Positions 3,365 to 55,929 of a stretch of DNA of 64,000 nucleotides are shown here, one piece after another. The DNA comes from Odiellus spinosus (lineage: Eukaryota > Arthropoda > Arachnida > Opiliones > Phalangiidae): positions 18,732,565 to 18,796,564 of the forward strand of contig OY987228.1 in the NCBI GenBank assembly GCA_963920705.1, in the 5' to 3' direction. Position 1 is the stretch's first letter. Each line of letters starts with the position of its first letter. The position numbers and the translations under genes were made by a program. A model generated the notes under the pieces. The model made no database searches, had not been told where the DNA came from, and worked only from the letters and a program-made list of their open reading frames with translations.

Positions 3365-4190
3365 TAAGTAAAATAATCTAGGAAATGTCTACTTTCTAAT
3401 GATGCAATCGGTTTATGCCTAGGAGATTGAAGATAAACGTTACGGTCAGTTTAAGATATGGGTTATTTTTGGAATTTCCTGGATTTCTATCAGTGGCGAG
3501 GCAACTTTTTTCGAGTGGCGAGGCACGATTTTATAATTTTAAAATAATCTAGGGAATGTCTTCTTTCTAATTGTGCAATCGGTATGTGCTTAGGAGATTG
3601 TAGAAAAAGGTTACGGCCTTTTTAAAAAAAAATGGGATCATTTTTGGACAATTTCCTCGATTTCTATTAGTGGCGAGGCAACTTTTTCGAGTGGCGAGGC
3701 AGGATTTTATAATTTTAAAATAATCTAGGGAATGTCATCTTTCTAATCGTGCAATCGGTATATGCATAGGAGATTGTAAAGAAATGTTACGGCCTTTTTA
3801 AGATATGGGTCATTTTTGGACAATTTCCTCGATTTTTATTAGTGGCGAGGCAACTTTTTCGAGTGGCGAGGCAGGATTTTATAATTTTAAAATAATCTAG
3901 GGAATGTCATCTTTCTAATCGTGCAATCGGTATATGCATAGGAGATTGTAAAGAAATGTTACGGCATTTTTAAGATATGGGTCATTTTTGGACAATTTCC
4001 TCGATTTTTATTAGTGGCGAGGCAAGATTTTATAATTTTAAAATAATCTAGGGAATGTCTTATTTCTTTCGATGGAATCGGTTTATGCCTAGGAGATGGT
4101 AGAGAAAAGTTACGGCCATTTTAAGATATGGGTTATTTTTGAAAATCTTGCTCGATTTCTATTAGTTGCGAGGCAGTATATTTTATTACT
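3365..4190. repeat. Tandem array of about 172-bp units, roughly 4.8 copies
   Basis: The landmark AATAATCTAGGRAATGTC starts at about 3371, 3543, 3719, 3890 and 4042, giving spacings near 172, 176, 171 and 152 bp. Each unit also carries GTGCAATCGGT, TAGGAGATTG and one or two copies of GTGGCGAGGCA. The 152-bp unit lacks one GTGGCGAGGCA segment. Units differ from each other at many sites, and the first and last are the most diverged, so this is an older array than the 20-28 bp ones. Unit length is near one nucleosome. Confidence 0.85.
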
Positions 4191-5803: not shown

Positions 5804-8732
5804 TAAAATATTTTAAGCGCCAAATGTAAACTTTTCAAGAGTAATAAAAGGTGTACAATTTAAAAGCTAAATGCGGGTGCAATAAAGAGACGCCATTTCC
5901 GAGACCAAATTTGGGACGAAAAGAAATATGGATTTTTCAATCTTAGCCTAAAAATGGTTTACGGCAACCATTAAGTATAATAGAACCGGGGCGAACGAAC
6001 GTAGGGCCAAATGTGGATTGGTCAATGCCCATATTATTCAAGATTGTAAATTTTTCATGTTTATACTTCATTTCTTCCCGTCTGAACCAATCTTTATTTA
6101 AATTAATTAGCCTAAAAATTCTCAAATACATAATATAATAGTTAATTTTCAGTTGAAAATTATATAAAGTTATAATAGGTGTTTATTTATTTTTGATCAT
6201 TTGAGTAATTGGAGCTTTTAGTCGTCAATTTAACGTTCATAAATTCAACCTCCTGCAGTCGTGGAACACGATGTCACGGAAAAGTTTGGCCTAGCTTTCG
6301 AGGTAAGTAATTTTACGTCAAAAACATAGGGTAGAGAAAACTCATTAGCTAATGGGAAGAGAATCGAACGATTGACTTTTTTTTTTTTTTTTTCGTTGGG
6401 AGTTCAAAGTTCCTGACACCATTTTCGCGAAGAAGGGTACCTCGCAAACTATAACTCGATTTGCTCTCGGCTTTTTTCCTTGGGCCTGCGAAGAGTTCTA
6501 CGAGTTTTTTTAAAGCCCCAAAGAGAGATCGACTCTGTTCCCGAGGGAGAATCCGCGGATCACACTCTCATCATCGCGCGCCGAACGCGTAAAATGTCGA
6601 CAACGTCCTCAGTAACTTCTAACAAATTCTATAAAGGAACGTTTCCATGTAGTGTTGCAAATTCTACTTATATAGTTTATCTCGCGTTCTAAATTTAACC
6701 ACTTACAATTAACGCGAACATATAATTAAAGTAGACAAGCCAAGCTCGTGAATCTAATCTTTAAATTTGAAAATTTCCTGAGGTTGTTTTTACTTTTAAT
6801 TTATGATTAAAAATTGATACGCTTTTTAATTTGGAGCCTTGTTATATACTTATTATATTAATTATACTGAATTTGGGGTTTAATTACTGTCTGAGCATTC
6901 TTATTTTCACGAAGTTACGAGTAGAATCAGCTATAGAGTTCATACAAATCTAGAAATCCTAAAGGGAAAACCTGAAATTATCAGGCAATTTGAATGTTGC
7001 CAAAAAATCAGGGAAACTCTTAAATTTTTTAAATAAATCAGGGAAATTTATGAAATTTGGAGTTATTTAAACATAAACTACAGTGGCAAATTCATAGCTT
7101 TATTGTATTGGTTTTTCCAAAACCTTTCATGGACCTAGAAATATCAGGGAAATTCCACTGGCAAAACCCAGAGCGGAAATTAGGTTTTCCAAATTTTGAA
7201 CCCTGTCTGAAGAAAATGGAAACGCGCCTTTAAGGGATTTTCGAGATAGGGACAAGCTTGAGAGCTAATGTTGAAGGTTCGTGAAACAATGATGAGGGTA
7301 TATATATAAGATCACCGTATATGCGCTCCGTGAATTATCACGCCCAAAGGTAGCGTTGACAGTTTTAGCAGGCGCCGAACGTCCAGGCACGTAAAAGTCG
7401 TAGAGTTAGATGTTTTCGGGCCGTCGAAAGCCGTCTTTTTTCGCAACCCGAAGCGGCTAACTCGGTTACGCGGTAATATCAGGGTTATATCACCTTTTTT
7501 TTTGGTATCGCTATATTCGCGTAGTATATACCCCCTTATCTTCGTGTCCCTTTATGGACGCCCTGCGTGCTCGCCTACATACGAACCTGACTATCAACAT
7601 TCAAAAGTTACCACCATGGGTGTCAATATTGCGTATAAATGAAATTTACAGATATATCGGTCTAACTTTGAAGTTGTGGGTAAATTTTACTTCGCTTATT
7701 AATTATTCCAAGAGAAGATAATAAACTATAATATTTGCCATAAAATAAAAGTGTAAAGAGAAGATGAAAATTGAAAATATTGTCCGAGAGACATTTACTA
7801 ATTAAATATTTTATCCAATAATATATATAAGATCTATTTAAATATATATTTTGACTTTAAAGTCAAGATTTCAAAGAAATAAACTTTGTAGTTTCATTAT
7901 TTGATAATAAATATAACTGTAACTGTTTTAAAATAAAAGGAATTTTATGAAAAATTATCAGAAGCAGTTACGGACCGAAATTGTATCTGACAATTTGAAT
8001 TTTAATATCTTCTTTTACTACCATAATTTAAGGACAAAGGCCTACGTGTAAAGTTTGCGAATGGTTAATTAACCATTAGGTTATAAGAAACATTCATTTC
8101 AATCCTTCATATCTGCAGATATCACTACAACACCTTCTCAAAATATTCACAAATTTATAAAATTTGAATTTTATAAGCGTATATGTTCAAGTTAAACCTA
8201 AAAAATATAATTTTAACATGAACTTAAGAACCATTATGCCTAACTAACACATTTAATTAAGGATAATCAAGCTTGGACAAAAATCACAACTTAATCACAA
8301 TTTAATTTGTGAAAAATCTCCCACGCTAAATGTGATTCAGGGTTGGCTTTCCTTTTACGTTATACACTGTGGAGCTTAGGCCTTTGTGTTCAGGTTCGTT
8401 TGTATTTGCATATTCCATTAAGTTTATATATATTTAAACGGATACATGAGGGTATTCTTTATGAATTTAAATATTTTTCAAGAGCATAATGTAATATAGG
8501 TTGATTTTATAGCCAATTATTAGAACTTTTGCAATTCAATATCCCTTTAAAACGTAATTTTAATAATATGCACGGCAGGTTCAAAGCTAAGCTCATAGTC
8601 ATGGAACTATATGAAAGTATTACCCTTAAAAATACGGATTTCCTAGTATTGGATCGTATATAAAGCCATAAATACGTGAAATATGGAAATTCAATGCTAA
8701 TACTATATAAAAGATTTTTGCCGAAATGTTTT
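5804..8732. other. No recognisable gene; dispersed repeat and promoter-like patches
   Basis: A repeat remnant rich in the phrase TCAGGGAAA fills about 6955-7205 and ends in AACCCTG, like the 12.8-kb and 43.3-kb elements. A CpG-rich stretch with a TATATATAAG word lies at 7300-7560. A 70-codon frame at 6480-6692 is unrecognised. The remainder (7600-8730) is A/T-rich with nothing supportable. Confidence 0.35.
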
Positions 8733-9071
8733 CAAACACTAAAGTGAGGCTATCACTCCAAATAAAACTCCAAATAGAAATTGAGTTCCATTTTCGGAAT
8801 GATCGTTAAAAAACGATTCAAAATATATATACATATGGTATAGAAAAAAATTAACACCACAGTAAAAATACTTATTTTATAATCGCCATTTTTGAATTTT
8901 TAAAATAAATATTTCCCACAATCTACGTCATCACTATGGTGGCCTGGCTATTGTAGAGTTTCCAGAGGTCAACCCAGAGGTATACAATTTTGAATATGGC
9001 GTTTTAATAGTGTGATAATTGACAAAACTAGCATTCGAAAAAAAGGTGTCAGCCTCACTCTAAAGGTTGTT
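8733..9071. mobile_element. Non-autonomous inverted-repeat element (MITE), 339 bp
   Basis: The left arm contains AAAGTGAGGCTATCACTCC (8741-8759) and the right arm GGTGTCAGCCTCACTCTAAA (9045-9064), which pair when inverted with a few mismatches. No open frame of note lies inside. Superfamily cannot be assigned; target-site duplication not identified. Confidence 0.65.
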
Positions 9072-9848
9072 TACTTTTGGAGTGACTCAGTGGCGTATGG
9101 ATTAAAAACTTGAGGATTAGCATTTAAATCGAAAACACCGATCTATTCGGATAACTACGAATTTTGAATAATATCATAAATATATATTTTTATTAATATT
9201 AAAACGAAAGTACCCTACTATAAAAAACCACAAGCTATTTGTTTTAAGTAAGGTATACCTGTATAATGGTTGGGAGTATAAGGAGTAAACTGTACGACTT
9301 GGTATTGAAATCAATACTCGAAGCACGTTCAAAATACAAAGAGCTTAGAGACGAGAGCGCGGCTTCGGAAGATACGAGATAAATTATTAAAATAGCAGAC
9401 TATAAGTATATAAGCTTTGATTTCATTGTTATTCTCAACAGAGAAAATAAATATCATAAACACCAAATAGCTCAAACAATGTATAACATTCATTTCTACG
9501 CGCGATCCCCCTTATTTATAGGAACTTCGAAATAACCGAAAAATCGAATTTATAAGTGCATGGGATAACTACAGAATCGAATGCAAATTTTTTTTCATTG
9601 ATCCAAAAAAGTATAGCTTTAGCTGCGGTATTAGTTCTAAAATAACCCATTTTAAAGAACCATAAAAACGAGTCACTCGTATAGTTAGACGCAAATATAT
9701 GAAACCGAAGGGTCCGACATTAGAAAAAATGTGTACGCGATTAAAATCGTAACTATTTTTCGAATTTTTTTTAAGTATTTGAAGATTTATTAGTCATTTG
9801 AAGATTTTTATTGGATTTGAAGATTTCTTTGGGATGTGAAGATTTTAA
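9072..9848. other. No gene; degenerate lead-in to the 22-bp satellite
   Basis: Ordinary AT-rich sequence up to about 9770. From 9775 to 9848 several imperfect words of the form ATTTGAAGATT appear at irregular spacing; these look like ancestral or decayed versions of the satellite unit that follows. Confidence 0.5.
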
Positions 9849-11476
9849 GATTCGCCAGGGATATTTGAAAGATTCGCCAGGGATATTTGAAAGATTCGCC
9901 AGGGATATTTGAAAGATTCGCCAGGGATATTTGAAAGATTCGCCAGGGATATTTGAAAGATTCGCCAGGGATATTTGAAAGATTCGCCAGGGATATTTGA
10001 AAGATTCGCCAGGGATATTTGAAAGATTCGCCAGGGATATTTGAAAGATTCGCCAGGGATATTTGAAAGATTCGCCAGGGATATTTGAAAGATTCGCCAG
10101 GGATATTTGAAAGATTCGCCAGGGATATTTGAAAGATTCGCCAGGGATATTTGAAAGATTCGCCAGGGATATTTGAAAGATTCGCCAGGGATATTTGAAA
10201 GATTCGCCAGGGATATTTGAAAGATTCGCCAGGGATATTTGAAAGATTCGCCAGGGATATTTGAAAGATTCGCCAGGGATATTTGAAAGATTCGCCAGGG
10301 ATATTTGAAAGATTCGCCAGGGATATTTGAAAGATTCGCCAGGGATATTTGAAAGATTCGCCAGGGATATTTGAAAGATTCGCCAGGGATATTTGAAAGA
10401 TTCGCCAGGGATATTTGAAAGATTCGCCAGGGATATTTGAAAGATTCGCCAGGGATATTTGAAAGATTCGCCAGGGATATTTGAAAGATTCGCCAGGGAT
10501 ATTTGAAAGATTCGCCAGGGATATTTGAAAGATTCGCCAGGGATATTTGAAAGATTCGCCAGGGATATTTGAAAGATTCGCCAGGGATATTTGAAAGATT
10601 CGCCAGGGATATTTGAAAGATTCGCCAGGGATATTTGAAAGATTCGCCAGGGATATTTGAAAGATTCGCCAGGGATATTTGAAAGATTCGCCAGGGATAT
10701 TTGAAAGATTCGCCAGGGATATTTGAAAGATTCGCCAGGGATATTTGAAAGATTCGCCAGGGATATTTGAAAGATTCGCCAGGGATATTTGAAAGATTCG
10801 CCAGGGATATTTGAAAGATTCGCCAGGGATATTTGAAAGATTCGCCAGGGATATTTGAAAGATTCGCCAGGGATATTTGAAAGATTCGCCAGGGATATTT
10901 GAAAGATTCGCCAGGGATATTTGAAAGATTCGCCAGGGATATTTGAAAGATTCGCCAGGGATATTTGAAAGATTCGCCAGGGATATTTGAAAGATTCGCC
11001 AGGGATATTTGAAAGATTCGCCAGGGATATTTGAAAGATTCGCCAGGGATATTTGAAAGATTCGCCAGGGATATTTGAAAGATTCGCCAGGGATATTTGA
11101 AAGATTCGCGAGGGATATTTGAAAGATTCGCGAGGGATATTTGAAAGATTCGCGAGGGATATTTGAAAGATTCGCGAGGGATATTTGAAAGATTCGCGAG
11201 GGATATTTGAAAGATTCGCGAGGGATATTTGAAAGATTCGCGAGGGATATTTGAAAGATTCGCGAGGGATATTTGAAAGATTCGCGAGGGATATTTGAAA
11301 GATTCGCGAGGGATATTTGAAAGATTCGCGAGGGATATTTGAAAGATTCGCGAGGGATATTTGAAAGATTCGCGAGGGATATTTGAAAGATTCGCGAGGG
11401 ATATTTGAAAGATTCGCGAGGGATATTTGAAAGATTCGCGAGGGATATTTGAAAGATTCGCGAGGGATATTTGAAA
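9849..11476. repeat. 22-bp satellite array, 74 units in two homogeneous blocks
   Basis: The unit starts GATTCGCCAGGGATATTT and closes with GAAA. Units 1-57 (9849-11102) read TTCGCCAGGG and units 58-74 (11103-11476) read TTCGCGAGGG. Within each block every copy looks identical by eye, and the arithmetic is exact (57 x 22 and 17 x 22). It ends abruptly in unrelated sequence. Stops occur in the unit, so it is not coding. Such uniformity points to very recent expansion or ongoing homogenisation. Confidence 0.97.
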
Positions 11477-12021
11477 GATTTGTTAGTTCTCTAGAAACGT
11501 TTATATGTAAAACTGTTTTTACGGAACATAGAGTGAATTTTCGTTAAAAGTAAAACCATATTTCATTTATAAATTCGTTTACGGGTTTTTTGGATCTAGG
11601 CGCGGTATTGCTACAGGCCTATTATTAAAGCTTATCTACCTGGACATGCTAGAGAGTTGGTTTTTCATATAAATATAGGTAATTGGTGTAGATAAATAAA
11701 ATAGATCCCCCCTTTATTTTTTTCCCAGCGGATATTATCTTATATATGCCTATATATAGGAGAGAAAACGACGACCAGAAAAAACTTTTCAATATAAAAC
11801 TGGGGGACCCGAGTTTATCTCGCTTTCATTAAGCTCAGGAAACGAGATAGTAAAAGGAGCACGCGATTTTTGCCAAACGAAGGATATTCTTTACCGGTGA
11901 ACGCTATACCTGGACTATACAGGGTGTTTACAGCTATTTGGTACTCACGCTCAGGTGCCCATGGTCCGTGCATGGGAAAGCGTATTTGCCCTTATCAACA
12001 GATTCAATTGTTGAGAAAGCA
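11477..12021. other. No recognisable gene
   Basis: AT-rich flank of the satellite. A TACAGGGTGT word near 11917 resembles the terminus of the element at 12830 but no partner end was found. An open frame from 11870 runs into the foldback element and is not credible as a gene. Confidence 0.35.
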
Positions 12022-13170: not shown

Positions 13171-14636
13171 CGTAAGGGAAAGAAATGGTCAAAAAATGGG
13201 GGTAAAGTTGTATTAGTTTTTGGCTATAGTCATTTAATACCTTTAGCTATAAGGAAGAGCGGCTCTTTTTAGCGGGCTATGGCGAAATGGCGGCGGTTAT
13301 AAACGAAGGGTATAAGGTTTCCTCGCTACGTACCGCAGGTGGTACTGAAATGCCAGAGACTTGACGGATGAGATAGAGCCATGACTACCGGAGGTCGACT
13401 CTCTTTCGGTTCTCTCCGCGCTTGGAGATAAATTTCCCTTAAAACCTCCAGAACGTCGCCGGTACCCCGTGGTGGTGTGGCGCCCGCCAGGTATTTTTCC
13501 TACCTACCCTACGTTCCTTCTTTCTTCGATCGAAGGAAAACGTCAATTTTAAAACAATGGATCTTATCCACCCCTCCTCAACCCTCCCTATACGCTCTCG
13601 CGAATGTCTCGTACATGACGTTGGTTTTGAAGTGAATGTTTTTCTTTTCTCCCCTGAGATTCTTATCTCGTATTTGATAGGTTGTTGTTTTTGAGGTATT
13701 CTAAAAGAAGAGTAATTTACTATCGCTATAAATTGAAGCAACTTTTAATTAGGCTTACGCGTAGTTCGTTAAACTTCTACAAAAGAAGTTGCGGATTAAG
13801 CGAAAATAAACTTTTAATTGATGTTAATTAATTTACATATACCAGGAATTTAATCGGGGAATAGTTATCACGGCTTATCACCTATACTAAAATGTGTCTA
13901 ACAAATTAATGATGTTGCTAAGATTAATTAATTATTCGCTTTAATTCATTTAAAATGCCAGAAATAGCATATATAAATGTATTAAAGTACTTAAACTGTT
14001 TAAGAAAAATAATCGTTCTTTGATTAATTTATTTTATAAGTGTAAATATTCTTTCGAATCAAGGGAATTCGTTTGAAAATACTTAATATCTGTAATAATA
14101 TTATTCTCGGAGTAATAAGTAATAAGCAGTATTAAATGAAATCACCGAGGGATCATACATTTCCATTTTTATGATTCAAAAATTTATGATTTTCGTGGAA
14201 TTTTTAAATTTCAATGATAATTTTCCATATAGTAAACGTTTAGAAACTGTGAGATAGGGCATTTTGGCACGTGTCCGAAAATCACTTTCATGTAATACAT
14301 GACACGATTTTTGATCAACCACTTCGTAACCAGCACACTCGCGTGACAAATAAAGTGTCCAAATGATTCCTATTCACTTTTTTAAGTGGAGTTCTGAATT
14401 TACGAGAACTATTCGCTTCTTCGCGTGATTTAACATTGAGAATAAATACGATCCAACTTGTCCCATTGGTACATTAAATGCTTCTAACTCACTACTCACG
14501 CATTTTTGTTAACAGTTTTACCAAAGGTATATGGGAAAAATATTAATACATCATTCATAAACACGCCATCTGTAACTGACACTTTGTTGTATACCGGGTT
14601 AAAAAGTTATCGGTCAACATAATGCGCTCACGCAAG
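13171..14636. other. No recognisable gene; CpG-containing patch at 13.25-13.6 kb
   Basis: Positions 13250-13620 are richer in G/C than the flanks and carry a 100-codon minus frame (13439-13741) that resembles no family. The remainder is AT-rich. Regulatory function is possible but unsupported. Confidence 0.3.
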
Positions 14637-15260
14637 TTACGGTTAAAGGTTAAACGGTTAAAGGTTAAACAGTTAAAGGTTACAAAATCCTTCCTAAAAT
14701 CGCGAAATCATTCCTAAAATCGCAAAATCATTCCTAAAATCGCAAAATCAATCCTAAAATCGCAAAATCAATCCTAAAATCGCAAAATCAATCCTAAAAT
14801 CGCAAAATCAATCCTAAAATCGCAAAATCAATCCTAAAATCGCAAAATCAATCCTAAAATCGCAAAATCAATCCTAAAATCGCAAAATCAATCCTAAAAT
14901 CGCAAAATCAATCCTAAAATCGCAAAATCAATCCTAAAATCGCAAAATCAATCCTAAAATCGCAAAATCAATCCTAAAATCGCAAAATCAATCCTAAAAT
15001 CGCAAAATCAATCCTAAAATCGCAAAATCAATCCTAAAATCGCAAAATCAATCCTAAAATCGCAAAATCAATCCTAAAATCGCAAAATCAATCCTAAAAT
15101 CGCAAAATCAATCCTAAAATCGCAAAATCAATCCTAAAATCGCAAAATCAATCCTAAAATCGCAAAATCAATCCTAAAATCGCCAAACCATTCCTAAAAA
15201 AAAAAAATCGCAAAATCATTCCAGAAATAGCGAAATCATACTACAAGTAACGAAATCAAT
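14637..15260. repeat. 20-bp satellite array (25 units) with GGTTAAA leader
   Basis: A leader at about 14641-14681 repeats GGTTAAAGGTTAAAC (15 bp, about 2.7 copies). The main array runs 14691-15190 with units of the form ATCCTAAAATCGCAAAATCA. Units 1-3 start with T, unit 1 has CGCGAAATC, units 4-24 look identical, unit 25 has CGCCAAACC. A decayed tail with CGAAATCA words continues to about 15260 after a poly-A interruption. Variants sit at the edges, as expected if homogenisation is strongest in the middle. Confidence 0.95.
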
Positions 15261-15381
15261 TCGTGATTCCAAAATCCTTTACAAATTTTTGAAAATGCCC
15301 AACCCCCTCGTTTTTCAGAGTTTCATCAAAATTCAACGACCCCTGTATTTCGGCTATCGCTACGCGCAGCAAAGCGAAGCC

Positions 15382-46568: not shown

Positions 46569-47935
46569 GCTTTTATTTTGAATTTGGCAATATCCATAAC
46601 GTTAAAAAATTATTAAAAAAAGAATACTTAAAAGCTAGTCGAGTCCATGAAAAATTTTAAGTCTTTATTGGTGTTTTTCCCACCTTGTTAGCTTTTTTTT
46701 AAAAAAAAATTATGATTGTATATTTTATTTTGGTTAACTTTTTTATCTTTTTTATAATTTCGCATTTCATTCCAAGTTATTAAATTAATTAAATTTCTTT
46801 TTAATTATTGTTGTAAAGAAATATTTGTGGCCTCCCCTCTGCCCTTTTTTATAGAAGCCTCTTATGAGTGTAAAGGTACTATTTTTAGATAGAGAGAAAC
46901 TGAAGGGTTTCCTAACATACTGTGGTGGCATTTATGTTTTGAGATCGATAAAATTAAAAGAGATTAGTTACGGTTGTGCTATATCAAAAGCCTAATACAT
47001 TAAAAGAAAAAGATTGTTTTATCCATGTTCGTAATGCAATAAAGATGGTTTAATTTAAGATCTTATTATTTTATTTCTATTGCCTCATTCACTCTTAAAT
47101 AAATGAAAATATTACTAATTATACTACCTATGTTATTTATGGATAAAAAAATAGTTTTAAAGGGTCAAAAGAAAAATTCACCCCCTCTTACTAAGTTTTG
47201 CCTTTATTATTAACGTTAGGGTTGTCAGAAGCTTGCAGGCTCAGTTCAAAATGTATCAGTCCCAAACCTAAGCTGCTCTCTCTGCTTTAGATTAGAAGAT
47301 ATTTTAAAAAGTCAGAATTTTAACATTTTTTTAAAAAGTTGGGGAATTTTGTAATAAAAATGATATATACTCAGATACTGTATATATTTTTTATTTAAAG
47401 GCTTAAAAATTATGTAATTTGGCTGGAAAGGTCAGGAAAAATTGCACTATTCTGATTATATATAGGCCTTACACTTACAAACTTTTGCTTTTCCTAATGA
47501 TAAAAACAATCCTTACTTTTTTATACAGTCTTGGGCTCCGCCCCTGCATATCCTATTATTATATTTTTATTATATGCTTTTTGATCCACTGTATTTAAAT
47601 ATTTCTGATAGTAGCCTAGATAATTAGAGTATTTTACCATTTTATAAACCGAAATAAATTAATAAACTAGAAAGTTGATAAAAAATGATACAGTCAAGGG
47701 ACTCAAACTTTGTTCATAAAACACGTGGATTTTCTGAATTGAATTTTTTTTAACCGCGAACATGGGTCCAATGAAATAACTCTTTTGACGCACGTGGTTT
47801 AAAGGTAATAAGTCGTCTGCTCAAAATCGGACACAGTGAGTCACGGTCTCGCGCTACCCCTCACAGTGAATTAGTTTAAATTTAGATTAAGTTTATTTAT
47901 TTTATATAAATAGCTATAATTATATAACCTGAACC
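46569..47935. other. PI synthase 3' UTR and ataxin-10 promoter interval
   Basis: The first part probably belongs to the PI synthase transcript (see AATAAA at 47038). Just before ataxin-10, 47820-47870 carries GGACACAGTGAGTCACGG, including an AP-1-like TGAGTCA. No third gene is visible. Confidence 0.4.
47038..47043 (+). terminator. Candidate poly(A) signal AATAAA for PI synthase
   Basis: A canonical AATAAA lies 470 bp after the PI synthase stop codon in AT-rich sequence, with no other gene before ataxin-10. Weaker ATTAAA-like words lie closer to the stop, so the true cleavage site is uncertain. Confidence 0.4.
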
Positions 47936-49369
47936 ATGAACTCATTTTTCAACGAACACGTCTCGTCAAGTTGCTCAAGGTTAAATTTTATGAGAGACTT
48001 AATGGAAAATGGAAATACCAGGTTTACCTCCTGTACCAAAATTATATCCTATATGGAAACAGAGCGTGATTTACTAAAGGAACAAGACTACCGTATATCT
48101 TTCAACTTCAATAAAGTAAAAATATTGTACGCTATCGCAAAAATAGCGTACTCATCTTGCAAGTGTGATCAAGTGGTAAATCCAAATAATATCATTGAAA
48201 ACGTACTAAGGTGTTTAAGAAATGCTTGCGTTCGATCCCCCAAGAACCAGTACTTAATAGCCAGTCATAAAAAGCTCTTTGGATTATTAATCGATAACTT
48301 CCGAATTATGTTCACGCTAGCCTTAAATGAAGAGCAGTTAATAGGTGTGCGATTAGCTATTCAATTCCTAGGTAATCTTAGTGCTGGCACTGACTCTCCT
48401 AAAAAACAAGTGTTTGACGAACTTAAAACCAATCTTAATTTAATTTTACTACTCAAACATCCAGACCTTAAAGTTAGGCAGTACTCTAGCATGCTCTTTT
48501 TTAATTGCTTGTGTGAAGAAATTAGAACTGAGATATTATTGGATAAAGAAAAATGCCAGTCAATTTTAGAAATGGTTCTTAAAGTTTTCAAAGACGACGA
48601 AGTAGAATGGAGTTTATTTACCATAGAATATTTTATAGAAGACCCTTCATTTTGGGAAGTAGTATACCCAAATTTAGATAAGACAAATAAACACGTCATT
48701 CTTGACGTATTACTAGAAAAAATTACGAATGCTAAAGGATATAATCATTTGGTATCTAAAGAACCTATTTTATTTATAATTTCAAATTTGAAATCTATGG
48801 TTCAGTATATTTTAAACTCTCCATCTAGTTACCCACCGGGTGATCCCTTAGAAACATTGAAACACATTGAAATCTTATGTTACGCGTCTTTAAACTCTGT
48901 TTTATGCGAAACAGTAAAATCAGACTCTTATTTATTAGAACTAATTCTGATTTTGCTTAAAACAATCCACACTTTGGGAAAACAAGGAATGCCAGAGTTT
49001 GAACCTATTGAAAATCTAAAATCATTGATCGAACCTCCGGAAGAAATTGTAAATTCACCCTTTTTCAGTTTAAAATGTTATCTAATTAGACTAATCTCGA
49101 ATATGTGTGACGAGAGCTTGACAAATCAAAATATTGTGCGGGAGGCAACCGGTATCGAACTTATACTCGATTGCTGCAACTTGGACGCTAAAAATCCATT
49201 TATTATCCAATGGTGCATCGTAGCGGTACGAAATCTTATGAAAAATAACAATTCTAACCAACAAAGATTGGCAAATCTTAGTTCATTGGGACCTTATAAA
49301 AAATCCCCAGTTTTAACCCAACTCGGTATCATAGTGGAAAATGAAGAAAATAAAAATTTGGATTCTTAA
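47936..49369 (+). CDS. ATXN10: Ataxin-10, complete, intronless
   Basis: Armadillo/HEAT-like cytosolic protein; the mammalian orthologue is linked to cytokinesis, basal bodies and neurite growth. One uninterrupted frame of 477 residues, close to human ATXN10 (475). The N-terminal two thirds is Leu-rich helical repeat sequence, including FLGNLSAGTD and KHPDLKVRQYSSMLFFNCL. The C-terminal ataxin-10 domain starts near residue 378 with SLKCYLIRLISNMC and continues through NQNIVRE, LDCCNLDAKNPFI and WCIVAVRNLMKNNNSNQQ, the most diagnostic part. No introns interrupt it, whereas its neighbours have 3 to 11 and vertebrate ATXN10 has many; a retrocopy that replaced the parent, or intron loss, would explain this. 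AATAAA words at 49406 and 49461 could serve as poly(A) signals. The antisense frame at 48361-48699 is a shadow. Confidence 0.93.
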   Translation: MNSFFNEHVSSSCSRLNFMRDLMENGNTRFTSCTKIISYMETERDLLKEQDYRISFNFNKVKILYAIAKIAYSSCKCDQVVNPNNIIENVLRCLRNACVRSPKNQYLIASHKKLFGLLIDNFRIMFTLALNEEQLIGVRLAIQFLGNLSAGTDSPKKQVFDELKTNLNLILLLKHPDLKVRQYSSMLFFNCLCEEIRTEILLDKEKCQSILEMVLKVFKDDEVEWSLFTIEYFIEDPSFWEVVYPNLDKTNKHVILDVLLEKITNAKGYNHLVSKEPILFIISNLKSMVQYILNSPSSYPPGDPLETLKHIEILCYASLNSVLCETVKSDSYLLELILILLKTIHTLGKQGMPEFEPIENLKSLIEPPEEIVNSPFFSLKCYLIRLISNMCDESLTNQNIVREATGIELILDCCNLDAKNPFIIQWCIVAVRNLMKNNNSNQQRLANLSSLGPYKKSPVLTQLGIIVENEENKNLDS

Positions 49370-52751: not shown

Positions 52752-53806
52752 TTAAAGTTTGCATAGACAGAATACTAATGGAATAAAGGCACCAATAGCG
52801 ACGAATATCGGTAGCAACGTGCTAGAATCGTCTGTGCTGTATGGGTTTGGACTCCTCGGACCAGATGGTCTCCTGGCTTGAGCGGTTATTTGTTCCGTTT
52901 TAATATCTTCCTCTTCTTCTTCTTTACTATCCCACCGGGATAAAGAAGCTAGTTGTGGCACGTCTATTTTCAATTTAAAGAGAAAAACAATTAGATAATA
53001 ATTTGCAGAGATATCACCATCCAATAAGAAGTTAGTTTAAAACTTAAAATACCCATTAAGGTTCCTCGCATCACAAAAATAGCGTTTACTTTTGGATTAT
53101 CTCTATAGCCCTAAAATGAACAACCTCCGAAGATTAAAATCTACTAAACGTACAAATTTAGGTATTATTTTCTTTCGAGTTACGTACTTTTATGAATTCA
53201 ACTTTAATTTTTCCATCGTGTTCCGATTCTTCTCCATTTACAATAATTTTATTTCCTTTAACTTTGAATGGAATGTGTTCGTCGTGCGCAACTCCTTTAC
53301 CAACTTTGGCAAAGATATCCAAATCAGATACCACAGTGTGCACTCCGTTTAAAACTACATCAAAGACCTACGAGCGTAGTATATTTAATTGAAACCCTGA
53401 CAGCCACGTTTAAAGGCTTTTAAGGAAAAGAGATTAATCTTACCTTCATCCCAGGAGAGTTAAAATACACTTCGCAAAATTTTAAAACTAAAACATAATC
53501 CCCATCGCGATTGACTGGTATGTCGTAACCGAAAGTACCTTGATGGTATCTTTCGGTTTGGTATAAAATTTGATCGGCTCTATTGACCCGACCGATGATT
53601 AGCTGTTTACCGTAATCGGACGAAGTACCGATTTTCCCGTGTAAAGGGTCTCTTTTATAATTTATTCCGTTTTCATTATCCACGTAACTTTCACCACCCG
53701 CGTTAATAGCGTAAATGATTTCGCCTATGCACGTTACACTTTGAAAACTACACGCTATGCAAAGGCTTAGCAAGACGAACAGGGCAGATTTAGGTAGCGT
53801 AAACAT
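52752..53806 (-). CDS. MLEC: Malectin, complete, 4 exons
   Basis: ER-resident type I membrane lectin that binds Glc2-N-glycans early in glycoprotein quality control and associates with ribophorin I in vertebrates. Exons on the minus strand: 53806-53444, 53367-53188, 53110-53053, 52963-52752; GT-AG introns of 76, 77 and 89 bp; 270 residues (human 292). Residues 1 to about 26 form a signal peptide. The malectin domain begins IYAINAGGESYVD and includes GINYKRDPLHGK, QILYQTERYHQGTFGYDIP, DYVLVLKFCEVYF and SDLDIFAKVG, keeping the aromatic and Asp-rich sugar-site region. An acidic run KEEEEED (214-220) follows, then GPRSPNPYSTDDSS and a single C-terminal membrane helix at about 249-268 ending LCKL. 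It is transcribed away from the Derlin gene. Confidence 0.97.
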
Positions 53807-54430
53807 AGTTTTTTACTAGGGATTTCACGACAAAACGAAAAAAGGTAACGTTTTTCGGCGTTCAATACTGTAATTAGCATTAATTTTTAATCGCGTAAAT
53901 CATACTTTATTCGTAATTATACGTGAAAATCCGGCGAACCGCTTCAAACGACACGTCCATCTTGATTTTTTTTACCGGCGTCACAAAAAAATTGGCTGTC
54001 AGAGCCTGTCAGACTGTCAGTCCCTTGGAAATAACCCTTGCAGTCGTCTGGATGGGTCCAGTGTTTTGGTGTTCTTTATTAGCGTAATATTACGGCTATA
54101 TTAGACCTTTTTGATGTTAAATAATATAATATTCTAATTGTCGACGTATAAGAGTTCAATATTACTTCAAAAATGACCTAATATAATTTGTAAGTAAAGA
54201 GAACTAACAAGCCATAGAGGTGCCTACACGTAATATAATGATGGGGTTAAAGGTCATGGCATCTTCAAAGTAGTGGCGTTCTTCGCCTTTGACAGTGTAT
54301 TGAACAAATACAAAATAGAACTAGATGTCATGACTCTTCAAATCTAAGGGATTTGGTTGTTATTGTTTGTGATTATATGTTTAACCAATAGCTATAAAAG
54401 ACATAAAGGATTCATTAAATATCCACAAAC
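53807..54430. promoter_or_regulatory. Shared malectin/Derlin intergenic promoter region
   Basis: 624 bp separate the two divergent start codons, so the interval must hold both promoters. On the Derlin side a CCAAT word at 54384-54388 is followed by TATAAAAG at 54393-54400, only about 30 bp before the ATG, which would leave a very short leader. On the malectin side I see no TATA box. ACACGTCC at 53951-53958 reads GGACGTGT on the minus strand, one base from the XBP1-type TGACGTGK core, and GGCGTCAC lies at about 53975. Assignment of these words to unfolded-protein-response factors is inference. Confidence 0.55.
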
Positions 54431-55929
54431 ATGGCTCTCGCACTTCATCAAGAATACATGCAAATTCCCGTGGTTACAAGAGCATACACCACGGCCTGTA
54501 TTTTAACGACTGTTGCTGTGGTAATATACTTTTTTTAAGTACTAAATTAACTTTTAGTTATATTACATTATCTAAAGACCTTGTTTTCTATTCAGCAATT
54601 AGATATTGTTTCGCCGTTCCAACTTTATTTCAACCCAGATCTCATATTTTGGCGCTATCAGGTCTGTATTTATTACTATCTTTTAATATTTTAATGTTTT
54701 TTTCTCTTGACTATCCTTATTATATTTTCAGATATGGCGTCTGATTACGACGTTTCTATTTTTCGGCTCATTCGGGTTTAATTTTCTATTTAATATTATA
54801 TTTACATATCGATATTGTAGAATGTTAGAAGAGGGATCCTTTAGAAACAGACCAGCCGATTTCTTTTTCATGTTTCTCTTTGGATCAGTCGTGATGGTCG
54901 TATCCTTTCGTTATAAAATTCTTAATTCTATGAGAAGGAATATTTTTTTCCTTAACAATATAATTATAAAGTTCATTGCCATGTTTGTCAATTTGCTCTT
55001 TTTAGGTCAAGCGTTTACGATTATGCTAGTCTATATTTGGAGTCGTAGAAACCCATTTATAAGAATGAATTTCTTTGGTTTACTCAACTTTCAAGCACCT
55101 TACCTACCATGGGTTCTATTGGGCTTTTCCGTATTGCTTGGAAATTCCGTTATGGTTGATTTGATGGGTTAGTAGCCATTTAAGTTATTTCTAAAATATT
55201 TTGCGTCGTGTCATTATATATAAACTTCAATTCTAATTATTAATTATTAGGAATTGCCGTTGGTCACTTATATTATTTTCTCGAGGATGTTTTTCCAAAT
55301 CAACCCGGTGGTATTAGAATTCTACAAACGCCGAGATTTTTGTAAGTTAGAACCAAAAATATTTCGTAATGATTTTAATTAATCAATTCGGTCTTATTGG
55401 TTAAACCACGAGTATATTTAAAAAAAAAACTTCGTTGCTAAGTAAGAAGGAGCCCAAACTACTAATGTTAAAACTCGCAAACAACAAGATTTCCTCCCAT
55501 GATTATCTAATTGACTAACTTTGAATTGGAATTTAGAAACTGGCCTCGGTTTAATTATATTAAATTAATTAACGAGACTGCTACTTCATGGTTGAGAAAA
55601 AGTTTATTACATTTAACGTTTCTGAAAAGCTTATGGACGTGCTAGTCCTTAATTCTCAAGGCAGCGCGGCTCAGTCTCTGAATAACAACACTAAAAATGG
55701 TGGTGTCTCAATCAGCTGAGTTTTACAACGAAATGTTCAATACGTTTCTTATAAACTCCTGGTTAAACTTTTTATTGGTATCAGTTAAATTACGATATCG
55801 GCCAATACTAGAAATAATGTTTTCTTTTTAATTGAACAAAAAAGGAAAATCTTATTGGAACCGCAACAAAATGATCCGAATTATAATCCGCTACCTGAAG
55901 ATCGACCCGGTGGGTTTAACTGGCAGTGA
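54431..55929 (+). CDS. DERL2: Derlin-2-like ERAD membrane protein, complete, 6 exons
   Basis: Rhomboid pseudoprotease of the ER membrane that helps retrotranslocate misfolded proteins. Exons: 54431-54520, 54596-54661, 54732-54899, 54972-55167, 55251-55341, 55845-55929; GT-AG, 231 residues (human DERL2 239). The N-terminus keeps the YMQIP and TRAYTTAC wording; the WR motif is W54-R55 and a GxxxG motif is G174-G178. [48 protein letters not shown] and [15 protein letters not shown] are near-identical to other Derlin-2 proteins, and [15 protein letters not shown] fits the tail. Intron 3 (72 bp) has length divisible by three and no stop, so reading through it would add 24 residues within a membrane helix; alignment to human favours splicing. 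The protein stops at GGFNWQ, just before the p97-binding SHP box of human Derlin-2. Derlin-3 is the alternative name; Derlin-2 is the usual ancestral one. Confidence 0.95.

What the first reader, a model, noticed from the sequence alone, without database searches (positions are those of the whole stretch)
9849..11476. 22-bp satellite of 74 units with a single sharp C-to-G boundary
57 units with TTCGCCAGGG are followed by 17 with TTCGCGAGGG, and each block is uniform by eye. Independent point mutation would scatter variants; a clean block edge suggests that a variant unit was amplified as a block, or two homogeneous arrays were fused by unequal exchange. The degenerate ATTTGAAGATT words just upstream may be the seed.
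Basis: seen in the sequence. Interest (0 to 1): 0.7.

Follow-up and report, generated by a model that had tools for sequence, protein, structure and literature searches.

The report
Two-block DNA minisatellite in an arthropod
A stretch of 74 tandem copies of one 22-letter DNA word really does switch from one spelling to another at a single point, and the likeliest cause is ordinary local copying of repeats, as seen in other repeats of this genome and in a human Y-chromosome repeat.

Summary
Window 9847-11474 holds 74 units of 22 bp: 57 AAGATTCGCCAGGGATATTTGA, then 17 AAGATTCGCGAGGGATATTTGA, with no other difference. A search allowing two mismatches finds 74 units in the 443-Mb assembly, all in this array. 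So it is a locus-private minisatellite, not a genome-wide satellite, and no source array for a fusion was found. The upstream ATTTGAAGATT words are real and match a dispersed 19-22 bp family: nine fetched loci on five contigs each carry their own unit variant. Block structure is common here: 15 of 19 arrays have more identical neighbours than shuffled orders. The window array is the only one of the 19 with exactly two types and one boundary. In simulation a single boundary follows from one-unit steps with an edge start, or from reiteration of single units; mean steps of two or more units rarely give it. The closest known case is the human MSY1 minisatellite, with 77 AT-rich units in blocks (PMC2599865, passages). 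A new member of a known kind, of modest interest; the wider seed family is the better part.

The parts
9769..9846 (+). Degenerate 19-20 bp words (ATTTGAAGATTTNTTNGG), relics of an older array of the dispersed family; likely seed zone
   Evidence: TRF period 19, 4.2 copies; blastn matches to other loci, best E 1.4e-12; family profile hits at 9776-9826 and 9796-9845, E 2.5e-4 and 3.6e-6
9847..11100 (+). 57 identical C-type units AAGATTCGCCAGGGATATTTGA
   Evidence: per-unit parse; no unit found elsewhere in the assembly
11101..11474 (+). 17 identical G-type units AAGATTCGCGAGGGATATTTGA, reaching the right edge of the array
   Evidence: per-unit parse; 17 matches genome-wide, all here
11475..11491 (+). 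Right edge: AAGATTTGTTAG..., a partial family-like word, not the private 22-mer
   Evidence: sequence; first 12 letters equal those of AAGATTTGTTAGGGATTTGA, a TRF consensus in L032; weak, short match
8700..9100 (+). Piece of a common dispersed repeat near the array; no fixed position or orientation relative to family arrays
   Evidence: hits in 4 of 15 sampled 10-kb pieces and 3 of 9 family loci; flank comparison, both orientations

Best explanation
A locus-private minisatellite grown in place from a relic of a dispersed 19-20 bp repeat family. SHOWN: an old degenerate word zone flanks a perfect 22-bp array; the unit was found only at this locus; one base separates two contiguous blocks; other arrays of the genome show the same blockiness. 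INFERRED: one family word drifted to the 22-bp form and was tandemly amplified. A C-to-G change then arose in a unit at or near the right edge, and that variant was copied to its neighbours by very short steps (one or a few units per event, by replication slippage or sister-chromatid synthesis-dependent strand annealing). No event that spanned the junction and multiplied it was retained, so one boundary survives. That G derives from C is likely but not shown; related units such as that of L032 have T at this place. No function is needed.
For: 57 + 17 otherwise identical units. Unit private: 74 matches at up to 2 mismatches, all here. Seed words match a dispersed family; nine other loci have their own units of the same root. 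Identical neighbours in excess in 15 of 19 arrays, among them 7 of the 10 arrays not chosen for matching the family, this one included. L031 shows a chain of blocks in which neighbours that differ do so by one base in 12 of 15 cases. Singleton unit types sit at edges: 36 of 96 edge units against 43 of 796 interior units in 16 uncut arrays; edges are as set by TRF. Simulation: among runs ending with 12-22 G units, one-unit steps from an edge variant gave one boundary in all (34 of 34, 252 of 252, 177 of 177), geometric mean steps of 2 or more in at most 12 of 98; steps of 1-3 units from an edge variant gave 32 of 127, 100 of 335, 104 of 290.
Against: Slippage, sister SDSA and single-unit reiteration cannot be told apart from one allele. 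If the variant arose at a random unit, one-unit steps gave a single boundary in 155 of 244 runs from 10 units and only 23 of 159 from 40 units, so the reading needs an edge position or a short early array. The same genome also makes large steps: L034 repeats 86 units in identical order at a lag of 118 units. Four of 19 arrays are not significantly blocky. In MSY1 mutants that break the block order also occur, one in sperm and nine in blood. No reads, no second allele, no relatives.
Confidence: 0.72

Rival explanations
1. Saltation: each block was made in one or two bursts by reiterated copying of a single 22-bp unit (rolling or looping template), with no long history of small steps.
For: A model of single-unit reiteration always keeps one boundary (342 of 342, 83 of 83 and 37 of 37 runs with a 16-30% G share, in about 3 events at the largest burst size); this is true by construction. 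Near-perfect identity of 74 units fits recent bursts.
Against: L031, L046 and L047 look like chains of short blocks. No circle or free template seen; none could be looked for.
Confidence: 0.15
2. Two homogeneous arrays of separate origin were fused by unequal exchange.
For: The clean edge would look the same.
Against: Neither type was found elsewhere in the assembly, the register is kept across the junction, and the types differ by one base.
Confidence: 0.05
3. Assembly or polishing artefact: true scattered variants were collapsed or smoothed into uniform blocks.
For: No reads available; copy number of a perfect 1.6-kb array can be wrong.
Against: A 25-Mb contig and no N in the window or the loci held suggest long reads, which would span 1.6 kb (inference); scattered variants survive in other arrays (L042, window 60581), and a 6.3-kb array keeps 17 unit types (L034).
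Confidence: 0.06
4. The C-to-G change itself helped the G block to spread: it creates the self-complementary word TCGCGA, so neighbouring units can pair as hairpins.
For: Two-unit DNA folds: G-type z -2.3 and -2.6 on the two strands, C-type +1.6 and +1.0.
Against: The C block is larger and just as uniform; no other array was folded for comparison; no rate data.
Confidence: 0.1

Closest known systems
Human Y-linked minisatellite MSY1 (PMC2599865; abstract and passages read)
   Same: AT-rich unit of 25 bp, 77 units in the donor studied, base-substitution variants arranged in contiguous blocks, there (1)15 (3)42 (4)20; sperm length mutants change block lengths by 1-3 units.
   Different: Here 22 bp and two blocks, in a probable arthropod (TTAGG-rich assembly). 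MSY1 mutation was measured, here it is inferred. MSY1 is constitutively haploid; ploidy and chromosome type could not be tested here.
Dispersed satellite-like arrays carried by non-autonomous Helentrons in oyster (PMC7492417; abstract and outline read)
   Same: Short tandem arrays dispersed through the genome, grouped into families.
   Different: There the arrays are the central repeats of mobile elements with their own flanking sequences; here 18 flanks of ten family loci share family words at array edges, pieces of a common repeat with no fixed place or orientation, and short matches of about 22-38 bp.
1.688 satellite family in Drosophila (PMC7642928; abstract and passages read)
   Same: A tandem family with many dispersed arrays.
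   Different: That paper reports that euchromatic 1.688 repeats of the same array do not cluster predominantly together; here arrays have their own, largely homogeneous units of 19-22 bp. Whether the window is euchromatic was not tested.

Membership tests
Minisatellite | Tandem array of units of about 10-60 bp at one locus (definition recalled) | tested here: met
   22 bp x 74 at one place
MSY1-type blocky minisatellite (works like) | Variant units in contiguous blocks, not interspersed | tested here: met
   two runs in 74 units
MSY1-type blocky minisatellite (works like) | Unit predicted to form a hairpin | tested here: inconclusive
   two-unit fold better than shuffles for the G type, not for the C type; single units not folded
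MSY1-type blocky minisatellite (works like) | Mutation by steps of 1-3 units, boundary switches | not testable with these tools
   needs alleles, germ-line DNA or long reads; simulation only shows that such steps can give the pattern
Satellite DNA (genome-wide, abundant) | Same unit in many or very long arrays | tested here: not met
   all 74 genome matches at up to 2 mismatches lie in this array
Array carried by a transposon (Helentron-like) | Related arrays share flanking element sequence in fixed order | tested here: not met
   no shared flank in fixed position among 18 flanks of 10 family loci; decayed ends cannot be excluded, and two flanks were not fetched

The most novel reading that the evidence does not exclude
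This genome carries ancient families of about 20-bp seed words scattered over its chromosomes (two were seen here), and each seed repeatedly and independently re-ignites into a private, internally homogeneous array. Units spread to neighbours one at a time, so the order along the array records the order of mutation. Arrays could then be read as clocks of local copying in a genome with a strong bias to single-unit gain.
Probability: 0.25. Interest if true: 0.5.

Novelty: new member of a known kind. Interest (0 to 1): 0.32.

Why it matters
A two-block array with 74 otherwise identical units is a clean natural record of how a repeat variant spreads. It argues for very short copying steps or few events, and the G block could be scored directly because each G unit carries TCGCGA (the NruI site, recalled). 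More widely, the genome offers several private arrays from common seeds, which makes the starting and spreading of minisatellites comparable across loci.

Tried and rejected
Coding reading: all three minus-strand frames of the array are open (545-590 aa), because the 22-bp unit has no stop on that strand and 22 is not a multiple of 3. Most simply chance; set aside without a family search of the repeat itself. RNA genes: no Rfam match at gathering score and no tRNA in the window. Viral contigs: no exact match to the unit. Carrier transposon: looked for by comparing flanks; not found in fixed layout. Of 14 ORFs scanned with Pfam (4, 10; the window has 82 of 75 aa or more), 3 matched and 11 did not. 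The species was not identified.

Limits: only 214 kb of 443 Mb was sampled (window, 40 kb next to it and 11 distant 10-kb pieces). The nine family loci were chosen because they matched, so their blockiness (8 of 9) is not an unbiased sample; the ten other arrays were not so chosen (7 of 10 blocky, this one included). In the edge count three arrays cut by the end of the fetched piece were dropped (L032, L036 and L047 at 9696). Arrays with fewer than 10 copies or periods over 40 bp were left out of the neighbour test. In the flank comparison the left flank of L036 and the right flank of L032 were missing. The stepwise simulations fix duplication at 55% of events, stop at 74 or more units, and count only runs ending with 12-22 G units. 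The first split by anchor word was faulty (units cut in two) and was replaced. Nothing is claimed about what is or is not in print on this repeat family.

Full report
Observation. The array is as described. Parsed in 22-bp register, 9847-11100 is 57 copies of AAGATTCGCCAGGGATATTTGA and 11101-11474 is 17 copies of AAGATTCGCGAGGGATATTTGA, with no other difference in 1,628 bp (TRF). The left edge runs directly into four degenerate ATTTGAAGATT words (9769-9846), the right edge into AAGATTTGTTAG and then other sequence. The argument against independent point mutations is strong but tests a poor alternative: 17 copies of one change come from copying, not from 17 mutations.

Genome setting. The window lies on a 25-Mb contig of a 443-Mb, 286-contig assembly, with GC 34% in the window. 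With up to two mismatches the unit occurs 74 times in the assembly, all in this array; the G form 17 times; the C-type dimer pattern 56 times. Hence the array looks private to this locus, and fusion of two arrays known from elsewhere has no support.

The seed. Outside the array itself the listed ones fall at query 702-850 (the words), at 778-899 (words plus the first two 22-bp units) or at 1-66 (a dispersed element). Nine of the places were fetched. Their units share the root GGGATTTGAA(A)GATTTNTT, yet each locus has its own version: by TRF consensus, for example, GATGTGAAAGATTTCTTTGG with 63.7 copies, TTTGTTAGGGATTTGAAAAATA with 55.0 copies (cut by the end of the piece), and a 6.3-kb array of 317.7 copies. 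The consensus hides variants: in the first, 33 of 63 parsed units are the exact form. A pattern of the root found 531 places at up to 2 mismatches, against 0 for the reversed pattern; the listed part adds two more places, C4:8.686 Mb and C5:20.549 Mb. Many of the 531 are units of the same few arrays. A profile of ten family units hit all nine loci and the window but none of the 15 sampled 10-kb pieces at E up to 1e-3. Units of eight of the nine loci went into it; those of L036 and of the window did not, so only these two hits are independent, and the L036 ones are weak (E 1e-4 and 5e-4). In 18 flanks of the ten loci, family words at array edges are shared, plus pieces of a common repeat (window 8700-9100) and short matches, without a fixed layout. 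So the words are best read as relics of an old dispersed family, one of which gave rise to the 22-mer in place.

Block structure is common here. In 214 kb sampled, 18 arrays of five or more copies (period 10 or more, TRF score 100 or more) cover 5.5% of the bases. Of 19 arrays with ten or more copies (nine family loci, ten sampled, this one included), 15 have more identical neighbours than shuffled unit orders at P 0.05 or less. The four that do not are L033 (0.063), L047 at 9696 (0.058), L042 (0.33) and window 60581 (0.66). L031 is a chain of blocks whose neighbours, where they differ, differ by one base in 12 of 15 cases. L034 repeats 86 units in identical order at a lag of 118 units, a duplication of about 2.4 kb. 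The window array is the only one of the 19 with two types and one boundary; L036 also has two types, but one is a block of four inside the other. Singleton unit types are concentrated at edges, 36 of 96 against 43 of 796. That fits poorer homogenisation at array ends (a known idea, recalled) and the edge position of the G block, though TRF sets where an array ends.

Mechanism. Simulated arrays grown to 74 units, with 12-22 variant units at the end, always keep one boundary when steps are one unit and the variant starts at the edge. They do so in 25-36% of runs for steps of 1-3 units from an edge start, and in at most 12% for geometric steps of mean two or more. From a random start one-unit steps give it in 37 of 37 (2 units), 155 of 244 (10 units) and 23 of 159 (40 units). 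Reiteration of single units gives it by construction. A present 57 + 17 array would lose its single boundary after a median of 149 neutral events of 1-3 units. So the clean edge means either very short steps or few events since the variant arose, and an early or edge origin. Human MSY1 is the measured precedent: (1)15 (3)42 (4)20, 77 units, AT-rich 25-bp unit, sperm length mutants within three repeats of the progenitor, and 145 of 159 alleles of one lineage with the same block order; mutants that break the order were also seen, one in sperm and nine in blood (PMC2599865, abstract and passages read). [quoted passage not shown] I take over that mechanism, or slippage, by analogy only.

A side point: C to G makes TCGCGA, so that G-type dimers fold better than shuffles (z -2.3, -2.6) and C-type dimers do not (z +1.6, +1.0). 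Hairpin help for the G block is possible, but the larger, equally uniform C block speaks against it being needed.

Verdict. It is ordinary minisatellite evolution in a clean form. The wider pattern, dispersed seed families with private arrays, is the part worth following; the neighbouring 20-bp array at 14683 also has relatives on many contigs, whose units were not read.

Noticed in passing
14683-15199: Second homogeneous array, 20 bp, 22 identical units after three that differ from them by 1-2 bases; a search with 14560-15320 gave 51 matches besides itself on many contigs at 64-80% identity, two of them only in the right flank.
   Followed up: partly
L034 1916-8268 (C4:5.011-5.018 Mb): 6.3-kb array of about 318 units of the same seed family with higher-order structure: 86 units repeated in order at a lag of 118 units.
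   Followed up: partly
L031 1509-2780 (C7:13.30 Mb): Chain of blocks whose types differ mostly by one base each, perhaps a spatial record of successive mutations.
   Followed up: partly
17 unit consensuses from the window (without the given array) and L041-L051: The word GATT/AATC is more frequent in array units than expected: 16 against 5.1 in shuffles, 0 of 2000 reach it; AAAT and CCCA are enriched more strongly, so it may only reflect composition and shared ancestry.
   Followed up: partly
47933-49369 +; 53420-53812 -; 54711-55172 +: Gene pieces with Atx10, malectin and DER1 domains.
   Followed up: no
9771-11543 -: The array is open in all three frames of the minus strand (545-590 aa), most simply by chance.
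   Followed up: partly
G000, contig C1: TTAGG 25-mers occur at many interior places of contig C1; the list shown covers only the first places, all on C1.
   Followed up: no
3369-4175: Larger tandem repeat: 3369-4025 with period 172 (3.8 copies), overlapping 3862-4175 with period 151 (2.1 copies).
   Followed up: no
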